Shown: piece after piece, positions 19,331-24,252 of the stretch
Layout: each line of letters begins with the position of its first letter
Numbering within the stretch: the stretch's first letter is position 1
DNA from: a virus
Direction: 5' to 3' (one strand)
Virus record (IMG/VR): IMGVR_UViG_3300031595_000006
Location: 1 to 43,427 of that record
Length of the DNA stretch: 43,427 nucleotides
Translations under genes and position numbers: made by a program
The notes under the pieces: generated by a model
The model's input: the letters and a program-made list of their open reading frames with translations, nothing else
Databases searched by the model: none
Told to the model about the DNA's origin: nothing

Positions 19331-21823
19331 CTACCGTTTCGGCGGCAAGTAATTGCCGGGCGAGTTCTGGCTAAGCTTCTGGACAGCGGCGACGGTCTTT
19401 TGCTGCGTGTCAGCCGCGCTCTGTGCGATCTGCTGACGCAACCGCGCCTCGACGTTCGGGTCGGCGTTGTTGAACACGTACTGCGGGGCGACGTTGACCA
19501 CGGTCGGTTGGCTGCCGCTTGATGTGGCGACGCCGAGCTTGCCGTTCTTGGTGCGAGTAAGCGGCATGACCGCTTCCGGGCCAGCCTCGCCCATCAAACC
19601 AGCACCGTCCGCGAACTTCATCGGGCCGTTACCGGCGGAGAACAGCGTCGGGCTGCTGACGATCTGACCGGAATAGGCGCTGATACCGCGACCGGCGAAC
19701 ACATTGCCGTTGGCGGAAGCCCATTGAAAATTGCCAGCGTCACCGGTTGCGCCTTGGAAGCCGGTGCCGGAACCGCTGCCACCAATTCCGAGCAACCCAA
19801 GCAAGCCGCCGCCACCGCCGAAGGCTTTGCCCCACAGATTATCGATCGCCATGTTCATCAACTTGTCGGCGATCTTGTTCAGCGCATTGGAGCCGGCCGT
19901 CTCAAACGCTTGCCACGCCGTCGCGCCCGCCTGCAGTTGGGTCCGCATGTCGGTCGCGAAGCCGTGCAGCGCGTCTTGGGCGGTGTTAGCCAGGCCGGCG
20001 AACGCATTATTCAGACGGATCGCCTGCGCTTCCGAACTGGCCAATGCGGCAGGAACATCGTTTCCGTACAGACCCTTTAACTGCTGTGCGATCTGCACGT
20101 CTTCCGGCGTTAGAAACGCGGTCTGCCTGCCAAAATTGATGCTCGAATTGACGTTCGCACGCTCCGCTGCCTGCGCCTGCTTGCCCATTGCATCGGCAGA
20201 CGCCAGCAAATCGGCGGTCTGCTGTTGCGTCAGAGGATGGCCAAGGCGGATGTTCTCGTAGACCTTGGCCATCACCGCGGCATACGAGGCTGCCTTACCC
20301 GTCGCCATGTCGACCGTGGCGGCCTGGATGGTGTAGGAGTCGGCCGACTTGTCGATCGCCGTGATGCCGAGCTGCGTTTCGTAAGTGTATTTCTGGATCG
20401 CGGCGACCTGCGCGCCAGTCAGTCCGGCGCCTTGCTGTTGCGCCTTGGCGACCTGGTCCATTTTCTGCGTGACCATGTCGGAGATGGTCGCGAGCGGGCC
20501 AAGCGCACCAACGTAAAGGCCGATCTGCTGGATCGCCGCGTCGAGATTGACGGCGCTTACGGCGCGATTAAAATTATTGATCGCTTCCGTACTACCCTGC
20601 GTACCGAATGCGTTGTTCGCGTTTTCGGCATCAAGTTTCTTGAGGGACGCGGTTAGCTTGTCGGCAACCGTGGCACCGGAGCCGAGTGCGGAGACAAGCG
20701 CAGCGGCTTGAGCGGCGGTAACTTGCGCAGTAGGTCCAGGCGCAGGCGCATCCAATCCACTCGTAGCGGGCGGATACGCCGGCACCGGCCCGACCATGTC
20801 GTTGATCTTCGACGCGGCGGTCGGCGCGTGGACGTTGTTCATGCCGGGGATTGCGCTCGCCATGCGGAAGGCGTTTGCAATCGCCGTAAAGACCCCGTTA
20901 CCGGACCACTCCTTCAGCGTGCGCGAAATATCGAGCAACGTATCGTAGAACTGCTTCTCATCCTCCAGCACTTCCGACGTAAATATCGACGCAAAGTTAT
21001 TCTTGGCGAGAGTCGACGCTTCGTCGATTTCGATTTTCAAATCGTTCCATTGCTGGACCTGCTGCTGCGTCAGGATGTCAGCCTGATTAAGTCCATCCAC
21101 CAGCCCATTCATGCCGCCAGCCGTAGCGGTCGAGTCGAGCACGCGACCGACAGCAATGCCGTTGCGACCGCCGCTCGCCGAGCGGGCAATTATGTTTTTC
21201 TGTTCCTGGTCGGCGTTATGATATGCCTGCGCAAGCAAATTCCACGCAGTCGTCGTGTCCTTGGTCGCGGACAACTGACTGACAAGCGTCGGACTGATCT
21301 TGCTCAGTTCGGTGTAGAGCGGGCCGGTGCCCTGTCGCAACTGCTCAACCGACACGGTGAACATGTCCAGGCTTTGCGTCATCATCTCCGACGAAATGCC
21401 GACGCGGTCGCCTGCGATCTGCAACCCCTGCAGTTGCGTGGTCGTGATGCCGGCAGTATCGGCGATATTCGTCAGACTTTGGGCGAGTTCGCCCATCCGG
21501 TTAGCGGACTCGATCATCTTGTCGATCGCAACGACGATGGCACCGACACCGGCTGCGGCAGCAATTCCCTCCGGTCCCATGACCGTCAGCAGCGAACCCA
21601 TGATGCCGAAGTTACTGGCCATGCCCGTGGCGCGCGCTTCCAATACGCCAAGGACTTCAGACATTTTGCCAAGGTCGCGCTCGGCAACACTCGACGCACT
21701 ACCGCCCATCTTGGTCGCGGCGGACTCGGCCTTGCCTGCGGACGCGGCAAACTTATCCAAGTCAACCGTCGCCTTTTGGGCGCCGGATGAGTCGATGACG
21801 ATTCCGAGTGTCGCGTCGCTCAT
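19331..21823 (-). CDS. Tail tape measure protein
   Basis: 830 aa. The N-terminus (MSDATLGIVIDSSGAQKATVDLDKF) is typical of tape measure proteins, followed by long helices and Ala-rich hydrophobic stretches (for example VMGPEGIAAAAGVGAIVVAI and the Gly-rich GKAFGGGGGLLGLLGIGGSG). The C-terminal part has the usual AFADGAGLMGEAGPEAVMPL-like element (FADGAGLMGEAGPEAVMPL). It sets tail length and may aid DNA entry; at about 1.5 angstrom per residue the tail would be near 125 nm. ATG overlaps the stop of the T-like frame (ATGA). Confidence 0.95.
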   Translation of the reverse strand: MSDATLGIVIDSSGAQKATVDLDKFAASAGKAESAATKMGGSASSVAERDLGKMSEVLGVLEARATGMASNFGIMGSLLTVMGPEGIAAAAGVGAIVVAIDKMIESANRMGELAQSLTNIADTAGITTTQLQGLQIAGDRVGISSEMMTQSLDMFTVSVEQLRQGTGPLYTELSKISPTLVSQLSATKDTTTAWNLLAQAYHNADQEQKNIIARSASGGRNGIAVGRVLDSTATAGGMNGLVDGLNQADILTQQQVQQWNDLKIEIDEASTLAKNNFASIFTSEVLEDEKQFYDTLLDISRTLKEWSGNGVFTAIANAFRMASAIPGMNNVHAPTAASKINDMVGPVPAYPPATSGLDAPAPGPTAQVTAAQAAALVSALGSGATVADKLTASLKKLDAENANNAFGTQGSTEAINNFNRAVSAVNLDAAIQQIGLYVGALGPLATISDMVTQKMDQVAKAQQQGAGLTGAQVAAIQKYTYETQLGITAIDKSADSYTIQAATVDMATGKAASYAAVMAKVYENIRLGHPLTQQQTADLLASADAMGKQAQAAERANVNSSINFGRQTAFLTPEDVQIAQQLKGLYGNDVPAALASSEAQAIRLNNAFAGLANTAQDALHGFATDMRTQLQAGATAWQAFETAGSNALNKIADKLMNMAIDNLWGKAFGGGGGLLGLLGIGGSGSGTGFQGATGDAGNFQWASANGNVFAGRGISAYSGQIVSSPTLFSAGNGPMKFADGAGLMGEAGPEAVMPLTRTKNGKLGVATSSGSQPTVVNVAPQYVFNNADPNVEARLRQQIAQSAADTQQKTVAAVQKLSQNSPGNYLPPKR

Positions 21824-22142
21824 GTGCGGCTAAACATCGACCTGAAAAGCGCGGGGGTGATTGGTTCGGGCGTCGGTTCTGGCGGACTGTTCAACATATC
21901 CAGCCGCTTGCTCTCCATGAGGTCGAGCAAGTCCAGTTCCCATGTGGCAAGCCGCTCGTTTCTCAGGCGGCACCAGGCGTCGATTTCGGTGTGGCTTATA
22001 GGAAGCGCGGAGTAGCCGTTGCCGGAACGGCCGCGACGTTCAATTTGCCAGAACGCTCGCCATACCCTCTCGGCCGCTGCGGGTATCCGCGAATGCCGTT
22101 GCTCTATTGCTCGGCAGAGGGCGCGACCGAGCCTTTGGTAAA
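21820..22142 (-). CDS. T-like tail chaperone frame, reached by -1 frameshift from the G-like gene
   Basis: An open frame of 106 codons ends at 21820, overlapping the tape measure ATG. It begins FYQRLGRALCRAIEQRH and continues with ISHTEIDAWCRLRNERLATW and ELDLLDLMESKRLD, a credible protein. It has no ATG, GTG or TTG between the last upstream stop (about 22190) and codon 71 of the frame, so it cannot be started independently at full length. It lies -1 relative to the upstream G-like gene and overlaps its end, exactly as in lambda G/GT. The fusion would be about 233 aa and would load the tape measure for tail assembly. Confidence 0.8.
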
Positions 22143-22520
22143 AGCCGCGCGGTTCTCGGCCTTGGCACGCACCTGTTCCAGAATGAACGGGTATGCCTTG
22201 TAGACGGCGGCGACGTTATCGACCGTGCACTCCTTTTCCTCGCCACCGAACTTGGGGTTCGGCGTCCACGAAATCGTGGCGCGCGAGAGAACGGTGACGA
22301 TGTTCTTTTCAATGTCCGCGGCGCTCATGGGCGCGGCATCTTCGGCGGCGAGGCGGGCGTTGGTGATGTCGCGATATGCCGCTTTCTGCCGATCGCTGTC
22401 TGGACCGGCAACCCGGATCGTAAACCCGAGCGGGGTGCGACGATCCGGGCCTTTGATGTCGATATCGATTCCGGCTTCCTGCGTGGACGCGAGCGTATCA
22501 AACTCGGAGAGATCAACCAA
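22104..22520 (-). CDS. G-like tail assembly chaperone
   Basis: 138 aa, TTG start at 22520 after AGGTG; an in-frame stop just upstream excludes a longer form. The sequence (DLSEFDTLASTQEAG, FTIRVAGPDSDRQKAAYRD, NIVTVLSRATISW) has the DUF-type pattern of small proteins preceding the tape measure. It would coat the tape measure protein during tail assembly, in a low ratio with its frameshifted fusion. Confidence 0.8.
   Translation of the reverse strand: MVDLSEFDTLASTQEAGIDIDIKGPDRRTPLGFTIRVAGPDSDRQKAAYRDITNARLAAEDAAPMSAADIEKNIVTVLSRATISWTPNPKFGGEEKECTVDNVAAVYKAYPFILEQVRAKAENRAAFTKGSVAPSAEQ
22138..22144 (-). other. Candidate -1 frameshift site
   Basis: In the G frame the codons read GCT TTT ACC; the TTT can re-pair with TTT one base back. 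It is not a perfect X-XXY-YYZ heptamer (A-site ACC becomes TAC). It is the best slip point in the overlap between the last stop of the -1 frame and the G stop at 22104. Confidence 0.45.
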
Positions 22521-22535
22521 ACAACACCTGTGGGG

Positions 22536-22943
22536 TTAGAGCGTGACGCCGGTGTCCTGGATCGAGACGTGCAGGAGCGTGGTCGACTTCGCGATGCCGA
22601 CCTGGATCTTCTGCATCCCGGTCACGACGTCCGCCTCGGGACAAATTGCGCCGGGCGTGCCGGACAGGAAGTAGGGGACGCCGGCGGTCAGCGTGCCGCC
22701 GATGGTCGTGTCACCGCCCTTGACCACGGCGATGGGCTGACCGGAACTGGCGGAGTTGAGCGCGAAGCCGTCGACCTGGCGCGTGCCGGTGCCGTTCGAG
22801 TCGGACAGTTTGTAGGTGCTCGTCGCGGCGTCCTTGTAGACGGCCTGACCCTGCGTGATGGTGGCGCCGGCGACACCGGAGCGATCGACGTTCGCTCCGG
22901 TGCCCGCTGCTACGTTCGCGGCAGTGATTGCGATGTCCGCCAT
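22536..22943 (-). CDS. Small structural protein, decoration-like
   Basis: 135 aa from ATG 22943, two bases after the major tail protein stop; the longer frame is a shadow. Repetitive, Gly/Thr/Ala-rich beta sequence (GATITQGQAVYKDAATSTYKL, GDTTIGGTLTAGVPYFL) resembles DUF2190-like capsid or tail decoration proteins. Lying between the major tail protein and the chaperone, it may decorate the tail tube. Function inferred. Confidence 0.6.
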   Translation of the reverse strand: MADIAITAANVAAGTGANVDRSGVAGATITQGQAVYKDAATSTYKLSDSNGTGTRQVDGFALNSASSGQPIAVVKGGDTTIGGTLTAGVPYFLSGTPGAICPEADVVTGMQKIQVGIAKSTTLLHVSIQDTGVTL

Positions 22944-22945
22944 GG

Positions 22946-23419
22946 TTACGCCGCCGCCAGTTCTGCGATGTTGCTGTTGATCTCGACGGTGCTGTTGATG
23001 TTGCGCACCGTGTTCGGGCCGCCGCCGTTGTGGGTGTAGTCGGTCACGAGGCCGACGAAGAAATGCGTGGTGCCGTTGGTGCCCTGCGAGTCGTCCCACA
23101 CGACCTTGAACGCGTAGTTGTCCTTGGCGTCACGCGCCGCCTTGAGCGCCGCCTGACCGGCATCGCCATTGACGAACGAAAACACGTTCTTCATCTGGCC
23201 GGCGTTCTTCGTGCCCTTCTGCTTCAGGTCACGATCGCGATTGATGAGCGCCGTGGTGATGAGGTTCGCGGTATCGCCGAACGGGCCACAGGTTTCCCAA
23301 CCGTCGACCTCGACCCAACTCTGTCCGTTGAAGTCGGCGACAGCGAAATCGGCAGACTGCGTGGCCTTCACGCCGCCGATGTAGATTTTCGCCCCTGCGA
23401 CGGGGAAAAGATCGGACAT
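22946..23419 (-). CDS. Major tail (tube) protein
   Basis: 157 aa from ATG 23419, with GGAG 7 nt upstream. The pattern GAKIYIGG, FNGQSWVEVDGWETCGPFGD and QKGTKNAGQMKNVFSFVNGDAGQ, then NYAFKVVWDD and FVGLVTDYTHN, is that of siphovirus tail tube subunits. It would form the tube around the tape measure. Neighbours (tail terminator upstream, chaperones downstream) agree. Confidence 0.85.
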   Translation of the reverse strand: MSDLFPVAGAKIYIGGVKATQSADFAVADFNGQSWVEVDGWETCGPFGDTANLITTALINRDRDLKQKGTKNAGQMKNVFSFVNGDAGQAALKAARDAKDNYAFKVVWDDSQGTNGTTHFFVGLVTDYTHNGGGPNTVRNINSTVEINSNIAELAAA

Positions 23420-23466
23420 ATTCAACTCCGTCTAAGGGATCGCGCGCCATCACGGCGGGCTATGGG

Positions 23467-23539: not shown

Positions 23540-23836
23540 ATGAAACGGTTTATTATCCTCTTGTGTCTGCTGAGCGCGCCGGCGTGGGCCGATGACCGGT
23601 CAACCTGCCTCATGGCTGCGGCGGCGCACCTTCCGGCGGTGCCGGGGCTTCAGATCACGTCCTCGCAGGCGCAAGAGCTGACCGTTCGGCCGCAGGATAA
23701 GAAAACCATCCGGTCGCAGTTCATCGTGACGATTGATTTCACCGCCGCGGCGCAGACCATGCAGTCGCAGTCGCTATGCACCCTCGCAGCGTGGGGCGTT
23801 CAGCGCCCCTTTATCGAGCCGTGGCCGCGCAGTTAG
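23540..23836 (+). CDS. Exported protein of unknown function (moron candidate)
   Basis: 98 aa with a clear signal peptide: MKRFIILLCLLSAPAWA, cleavage near AWA-DD. The mature part has two Cys (CLMAAAAHL and LCTLAAWGV) that may pair, and no domain I recognise. It is inserted on the + strand between the major tail protein and the tail terminator with its own promoter, the typical layout of a moron expressed from the prophage. It could alter the envelope or exclude other phages. It overlaps the convergent terminator gene by 4 bp. Confidence 0.7.
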   Translation: MKRFIILLCLLSAPAWADDRSTCLMAAAAHLPAVPGLQITSSQAQELTVRPQDKKTIRSQFIVTIDFTAAAQTMQSQSLCTLAAWGVQRPFIEPWPRS

Positions 23837-24252
23837 GGATACACCTTCCACGGGATGACCACGGGGATCTCGTCATACGCACCGGACACGATGTCACCTT
23901 GAACCATCGGCTCGTCGACGATGCGGAATTCGATTCCGGAGTAGGTCCACTTGGTGCCGAAGGCAAACGCGTTGCGGATGCTGTTGGCGAGGTCGGACGC
24001 GGCGCCAATGCCTTGGCCAATGGGCCAGCAAACCGTGGCGAGCAGAATGCCCATGCGGATCGGCTCGTGGCCGCCGCTGAGTCGACCCGAGACTGGCTGG
24101 TTCTTAGCCACCACGAGGCGGACGTAAGGATGTGTGCTGTCAGGCGTGAACGTCGTGTTCGGATACGATACCTGAGTGCCGCTCGGCAACGTGACCGTGC
24201 CGAACTGCGTAATCAGGCCGTCAACGATCTTGCCCTCAATGGACGTGCTCAT
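23833..24252 (-). CDS. Tail terminator protein (DUF4128 type)
   Basis: 139 aa. The pattern SIEGKIVDGLITQFG, YVRLVVAKNQP, RMGILLATVCWPIGQGIGAASDLANSIRNAF and EIPVVIPWKVYP matches phage tail terminator/completion proteins of the DUF4128 group. It would cap the finished tail tube and join it to the head. It lies between the gp10-like and major tail genes as expected. Confidence 0.82.
   Translation of the reverse strand: MSTSIEGKIVDGLITQFGTVTLPSGTQVSYPNTTFTPDSTHPYVRLVVAKNQPVSGRLSGGHEPIRMGILLATVCWPIGQGIGAASDLANSIRNAFAFGTKWTYSGIEFRIVDEPMVQGDIVSGAYDEIPVVIPWKVYP

What the first reader, a model, noticed from the sequence alone, without database searches (positions are those of the whole stretch)
21820..22520. 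G/GT-type programmed -1 frameshift with no start codon in the T frame
The second frame (106 codons, ending at the tape measure ATG) has no ATG/GTG/TTG for its first 70 codons, overlaps the G-like gene in the -1 frame, and encodes credible protein. Only a frameshift near TTT at 22140-22143 gives a full product. The slip site GCT-TTT-ACC is not a standard heptamer, so the mechanism may be unusual.
Basis: partly seen in the sequence, partly recalled or inferred. Interest (0 to 1): 0.65.

Follow-up and report, generated by a model that had tools for sequence, protein, structure and literature searches.

The report
Phage tail-chaperone G/GT ribosomal frameshift
A tail-making phage almost certainly uses the classic trick of letting a few ribosomes slip back one base near the end of its tail-chaperone gene to make a longer version of the protein; the slip site is a loose variant (only T-TTT is kept across relatives), so this is a solid new example of something already well known.

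Summary
Between major tail and tape-measure genes (minus strand) lie a G-like gene (22520-22104, TTG start) and an overlapping -1 frame (22143-21820) with no ATG/GTG/TTG in its first 71 codons. The -1 frame is real protein: Pfam Phage_TAC_18 above cut-off, and third-position changes dominate in relatives (554 of 695). G matches the tail assembly chaperone family phrog_313. In about 85 relatives the same arrangement recurs, and at the junction T-TTY is invariant. The upstream codon varies (Ser, Ala, Gly, Val, Pro) but always ends in T, and Phe is TTT in 85% of non-redundant sequences against 20% elsewhere. Stops in phiLM21 bracket the shift to about five codons around this site. A stem starting about 7 nt downstream is present in the window and many relatives. 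A sequencing indel is excluded by independent contigs; independent translation of T is very unlikely. Best reading: lambda-type programmed -1 frameshifting making G and a 233-residue GT, with Phe-tRNA slipping from UUU to UUU at 22142-22140. The heptamer GGCTTTT is not canonical, but non-canonical sites in phage tail chaperones are already documented. No frameshift was measured.

The parts
22104..22520 (-). G-like tail assembly chaperone gene (138 aa; TTG start, AGGTG 5' of it)
   Evidence: ORF; phrog_313 Tail assembly chaperone 53.5 bits; start residue lines up with the ATG of relative L010
22140..22146 (-). slip site G_GCT_TTT; Phe codon 22142-22140 re-pairs at 22143-22141 after the -1 shift
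   Evidence: T-TTY invariant in 27 non-redundant sequences
22109..22132 (-). possible stimulatory hairpin GCTCGGT-N10-GCCGAGC, 7 nt after the slip codon, inside the last codons of G
   Evidence: -10 kcal/mol; 7-bp stem; similar 8-bp stem with N10 loop at the same place in L015; a 10-bp stem with the same 7-nt spacer in most Rhizobiaceae relatives
21820..22143 (-). T frame (-1), 107 codons from the re-read Phe codon plus stop; C-terminal part of GT (GT predicted 233 aa)
   Evidence: Pfam PF23812 Phage_TAC_18, 32.7 bits, cut-off 27; all 26 aligned T proteins hit it
19331..21823 (-). tail length tape measure gene, start overlapping the T stop
   Evidence: phrog_1716 and others, tail length tape measure protein
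22946..23425 (-). major tail protein gene
   Evidence: phrog_158 major tail protein, 6.4e-21
23833..24252 (-). tail terminator gene
   Evidence: Pfam Phage_tail_terminator_5, 2.8e-19; phrog_179

Best explanation
This is a lambda-type G/GT tail assembly chaperone pair. Most ribosomes translate G to its TAG. A minority slip back one base when Phe-tRNA sits on UUU (22142-22140), re-pair it with the overlapping UUU one base upstream, and go on with UAC into the T frame, making GT (predicted 233 aa, junction ...NRAAF-YQRLG...). By analogy with lambda, G coats the tape measure protein and the T domain of GT recruits the major tail protein. Shown here: the two frames, T coding, conservation and position of the junction. 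Inferred: that the shift is ribosomal, that a hairpin 7 nt downstream helps, the roles of G and GT, and the efficiency.
For: Order tail terminator, major tail, G, T, tape measure. G = phrog_313; T = Phage_TAC_18 above Pfam cut-off. PHROG 8233 (271 positions, tail assembly chaperone) aligns G members at 9-124 and T members at 173-252, so G and T occur in one polypeptide family. Same -1 overlap in relatives from Rhizobium, Sinorhizobium, Phyllobacterium, Devosia and Shinella phages or prophages. In the non-redundant set the T before the Phe codon and the first two T of it are 100% invariant while the preceding codon is TCT, GCT, GGT, GTT or CCT; naive odds from codon usage about 10^-22 for the NNT choice (the sequences are related, so this overstates it). 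In phiLM21 a -1 stop TAG lies one codon before the re-read Phe codon and the G stop three codons after the Phe codon. T-frame differences fall 554/103/38 on codon positions 3/1/2 in 26 independent pairs. 83 of 88 loci have no start codon in the T frame before its codon 22.
Against: No expression data. The site GGCTTTT does not allow good re-pairing of the preceding Ala-tRNA. Downstream structure is not significant by MFE in the window over 50 nt (z +0.7), only locally (30-nt window among the lowest 6.5%). Folds gave no match to solved structures.
Confidence: 0.94

Rival explanations
1. T is translated on its own, by re-initiation after the G stop or from a non-standard start codon (for example ATA overlapping the G stop, AATAG).
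For: Public records annotate T of relatives as a separate gene from a codon inside the frame. In the window an ATA overlaps the TAG stop.
Against: Conserved T sequence (FYQ.L...L) begins at the slip codon, 33 nt before the G stop in the window; no start codon there in 83 of 88 loci; initiation would not explain the invariant T-TTY with a variable preceding codon.
Confidence: 0.04
2. The frame break is a sequencing or assembly indel, or a recent mutation, and G and T are really one gene.
For: Such indels do occur: relative L033 seems to have one just downstream.
Against: Two other contigs (3300031235, 3300028800) carry the identical junction, one of them about 3% diverged in G; the same break at the same codon occurs in 27 non-redundant sequences.
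Confidence: 0.005
3. The shift is made by RNA polymerase slippage on the TTTT run rather than by ribosomes.
For: A short T run lies at the junction.
Against: Transcriptional realignment uses longer runs (Tn, n > 8; PMC3711429). Several relatives have only TTTC.
Confidence: 0.01

Closest known systems
Lambda gpG/gpGT tail assembly chaperones and the conserved G/GT frameshift of long-tailed phages (Levin 1993; Xu, Hendrix and Duda 2004, as cited in PMC5009743)
   Same: Gene order, -1 direction, G then overlapping T, T ends at the tape measure start, low-level -1 shift expected
   Different: Lambda slips on GGGAAAG (lysine codon; my own knowledge); here the shift codon is Phe (TTT) and the preceding codon does not re-pair well
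Non-standard slip motifs of phage tail chaperones in PRFect (PMC10885494), e.g. 'twoonefour'
   Same: GG-C-TTTT appears to fit 'twoonefour' by its name; the authors report that most such sites are not explained by G:U pairing
   Different: Their motif definitions (supplement) were not read; relatives here (CTCTTTT, GTCTTTT) show that the two-one part is not conserved and only T-TTY is
Sinorhizobium phage phiLM21 and Rhizobium phages RHph_N28_2, RHph_TM3_3_3
   Same: Homologous G (34-36% identical by tblastn) and T, same junction TCT TTT AC(C/A)
   Different: Annotated as separate hypothetical proteins without a frameshift; 9-10 bp rather than 7-bp downstream stem

Membership tests
G/GT tail assembly chaperone frameshift (lambda type) | Two overlapping ORFs between major tail protein and tape measure | tested here: met
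   one cement-like ORF also lies between major tail and G
G/GT tail assembly chaperone frameshift (lambda type) | Second ORF in the -1 frame without its own start | tested here: met
G/GT tail assembly chaperone frameshift (lambda type) | Both parts belong to tail chaperone families | tested here: met
   phrog_313 for G, Phage_TAC_18 for T
G/GT tail assembly chaperone frameshift (lambda type) | Slip sequence conserved in relatives | tested here: met
   T-TTY invariant
G/GT tail assembly chaperone frameshift (lambda type) | Canonical X_XXY_YYZ heptamer (common, not a defining requirement) | tested here: not met
   GGCTTTT; canonical GGGTTTT or CCCTTTC only in some relatives
G/GT tail assembly chaperone frameshift (lambda type) | GT fusion protein made in low ratio to G | not testable with these tools
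   needs protein or reporter data
-1 frameshift with downstream stimulatory structure | Stem 5-9 nt after the shift site | tested here: inconclusive
   stem at 7 nt in the window and many relatives; at the 10-bp stem 8.2 of 10 positions pair on average against 1.0-5.2 when slid; little covariation and no stem found in some relatives

The most novel reading that the evidence does not exclude
A relaxed class of bacterial -1 shift sites in which only the Phe-tRNA re-pairs (U_UUY to UUU) and the preceding tRNA need not, kept across alphaproteobacterial siphophages; a sister group of TAC_18 phages (Curvibacter P26059A type) uses the same Phe codon to shift +1 instead.
Probability: 0.4. Interest if true: 0.42.

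Novelty: new member of a known kind. Interest (0 to 1): 0.25.

Why it matters
It adds a well-supported, unannotated G/GT frameshift in a large family of phages and prophages of Rhizobium-like bacteria, and gives natural variation (ten heptamers at one homologous site, plus a +1 relative) that could test which parts of a shift site bacterial ribosomes really need. It does not change how tail assembly is understood.

Tried and rejected
Solved-structure searches by sequence and by fold found nothing credible, although both AlphaFold models were fairly confident (mean pLDDT 84). A Shine-Dalgarno-like stimulator upstream was looked for: G-rich stretches bind the anti-SD at about -29 to -16 in relatives, but the window is weak (-3 to -4 kcal/mol) and the spacing varies, so it is not claimed. 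RNAalifold over all relatives gave no common structure, because at least two stem types exist. A nucleotide search of phage genomes found only a far Rhizobium phage match elsewhere in the head-tail region. Literature searches for Rhizobium phage frameshifts and for CUUUU-type sites in phage tails gave nothing specific.

Full report
What is there. On the minus strand the window holds a siphophage tail module: tail terminator 23833-24252, major tail protein 22946-23425, a cement-like ORF ending at 22536, G 22520-22104, T frame 22143-21820, tape measure 21823-19331. G is 138 aa and matches phrog_313, Tail assembly chaperone (53.5 bits). The T frame is -1 relative to G, open from 22215, and its stop overlaps the tape-measure ATG. 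It scores 32.7 bits against Pfam Phage_TAC_18, cut-off 27. Its first ATG, GTG or TTG is 71 codons after the junction.

Is it an error? Two other IMG/VR contigs carry the same junction. One is practically identical; the other differs at 13 positions of G, all third codon positions, yet is identical around the junction. An indel is excluded.

Relatives. Protein alignment searches gave 79 viral and 10 bacterial-genome loci; three close relatives came from annotated phages (L002-L004). In all but a few, G ends with the codons NNT TTY followed by a -1 frame of about 107-122 codons. Exceptions: L033 (an indel just downstream), L089, L098, L099 (no T frame; the next gene is a protease-like ORF or the tape measure) and L063 (contig end). 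Removing redundancy leaves 27 T sequences. They align from their first residue: F(Y/R/F), then conserved L, P, W and F motifs (invariant F1, L9, P21, W28, F31, R39, W57, W68, F100).

Where is the junction? In the 27 sequences the third base of the codon before Phe and the first two bases of the Phe codon are T in every case. The preceding codon is TCT (18), GGT (4), CCT (3), GCT (1) or GTT (1). Phe is TTT in 23 and TTC in 4; in the long ORFs of these relatives TTT is 20% of Phe codons, in the window 30%. Amino-acid conservation cannot explain a fixed third-base T with five different amino acids; re-pairing of Phe-tRNA one base upstream can. phiLM21 brackets the shift: a -1 stop TAG one codon before the re-read TTT, and the G stop three codons after the Phe codon.

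Is T a protein? In 26 independent pairs of relatives, T-frame differences (beyond the first 15 codons) fall 103, 38 and 554 on codon positions 1, 2 and 3; 510 changed codons are synonymous, 119 are not. All 26 aligned T proteins match Phage_TAC_18. PHROG 8233, a tail assembly chaperone family of 271 positions, aligns G members at 9-124 and T members at 173-252, so in some phages the two are held as one polypeptide.

Mechanism. The likely event is -1 slippage of Phe-tRNA from UUU (22142-22140) to UUU (22143-22141), then reading UAC. Heptamers in all loci: CTCTTTT 56, GTCTTTT 14, GGGTTTT 5, GGCTTTT 3 (window and its two near-copies), CTCTTTC 3, CCCTTTC 3, CGGTTTT 2, TTCTTTT 2, ATCTTTT 2, GGTTTTT 1. 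Only GGGTTTT and CCCTTTC are canonical, so the 5' half is relaxed. PRFect lists eight -1 motifs from annotated phage frameshifts, and says the classical one is absent from most overlaps (PMC10885494). By its name 'twoonefour' covers GGCTTTT; I could not read its definition. In experiments two fs-genes of an HK97-like phage tail chaperone cluster shifted at 6-7% (PMC3711429). Lambda makes gpG and gpGT at about 30:1, with T binding the major tail subunit (PMC5009743).

Stimulator. In the window GCTCGGT-N10-GCCGAGC (22132-22109) starts 7 nt after the slip codon, about -10 kcal/mol. L015 has AGCTCGGT-N10-GCCGGGCT at the same place. In most relatives with a TGA right after the junction a longer stem, GCTGATCGAC...GTCGATCAGC, starts at the same spacing; averaged over 49 distinct sequences 8.2 of 10 positions pair, against 1.0-5.2 when slid by 1-3. 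Mean z of 80-nt folds downstream is -2.4. Some relatives lack any such stem, covariation is slight, and the sequence also codes protein, so a role is likely but not shown.

Distant TAC_18 phages. Vibrio phage 1.207.B has GCT TTT TTC with a -1 T frame, Roseobacter phage CRP-6 GAT TTT ACG, Bradyrhizobium phage ppBdUSDA122-1 AAT TTT ATT, Mannheimia phage 1152AP2 GGGAAAG as in lambda; all T frames match Phage_TAC_18. Curvibacter phage P26059A and its relatives have T in the +1 frame, with a +1 stop 17 nt before the G stop, leaving AAC TTT C(G/A)A as the only conserved candidate.

Verdict. A G/GT programmed -1 frameshift, a new example of a known kind, with a non-canonical but probably ordinary shift site.

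Noticed in passing
L103:1600-1670, L106-L109:1850-1911: Curvibacter phage P26059A group: G and a TAC_18 T frame are joined by a +1 (or -2) shift, bracketed to 17 nt by stops, with AAC TTT CGA or AAC TTT CAA as the only conserved candidate; UUU_CGA resembles the influenza PA-X +1 site UCC_UUU_CGU (title of PMC3498833).
   Followed up: partly
L098, L089, L099, after the G stop: Distant G-like genes without a T frame: in L098 (Aureimonas) a tape-measure-like ORF follows directly, in L089 and L099 (Devosia MAG) a prohead-protease-like ORF follows (by eye).
   Followed up: partly
window 22536-22943: Between the major tail gene and G lies an ORF weakly like Phage_cement_2 (Pfam, E 7.7e-4, below cut-off) and phrog_4368; a decoration-like protein inside the tail module is unusual.
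   Followed up: no
L002:4148-4435, L003:4142-4438, L004:4085-4369: GenBank records annotate T as a separate gene from an internal start, cutting off the conserved beginning (FYQKLIERLC...) and missing the frameshift.
   Followed up: yes
L033:2880-2920: One base fewer than L042 shortly after the slip site; breaks GT in this metagenome contig (error or real defect).
   Followed up: partly
165-215 nt after the slip codon in relatives: A second region of strong predicted RNA folding (mean z about -1.7 against local background) in the RTGNGYGPN part of T; may simply reflect GC-rich coding.
   Followed up: no
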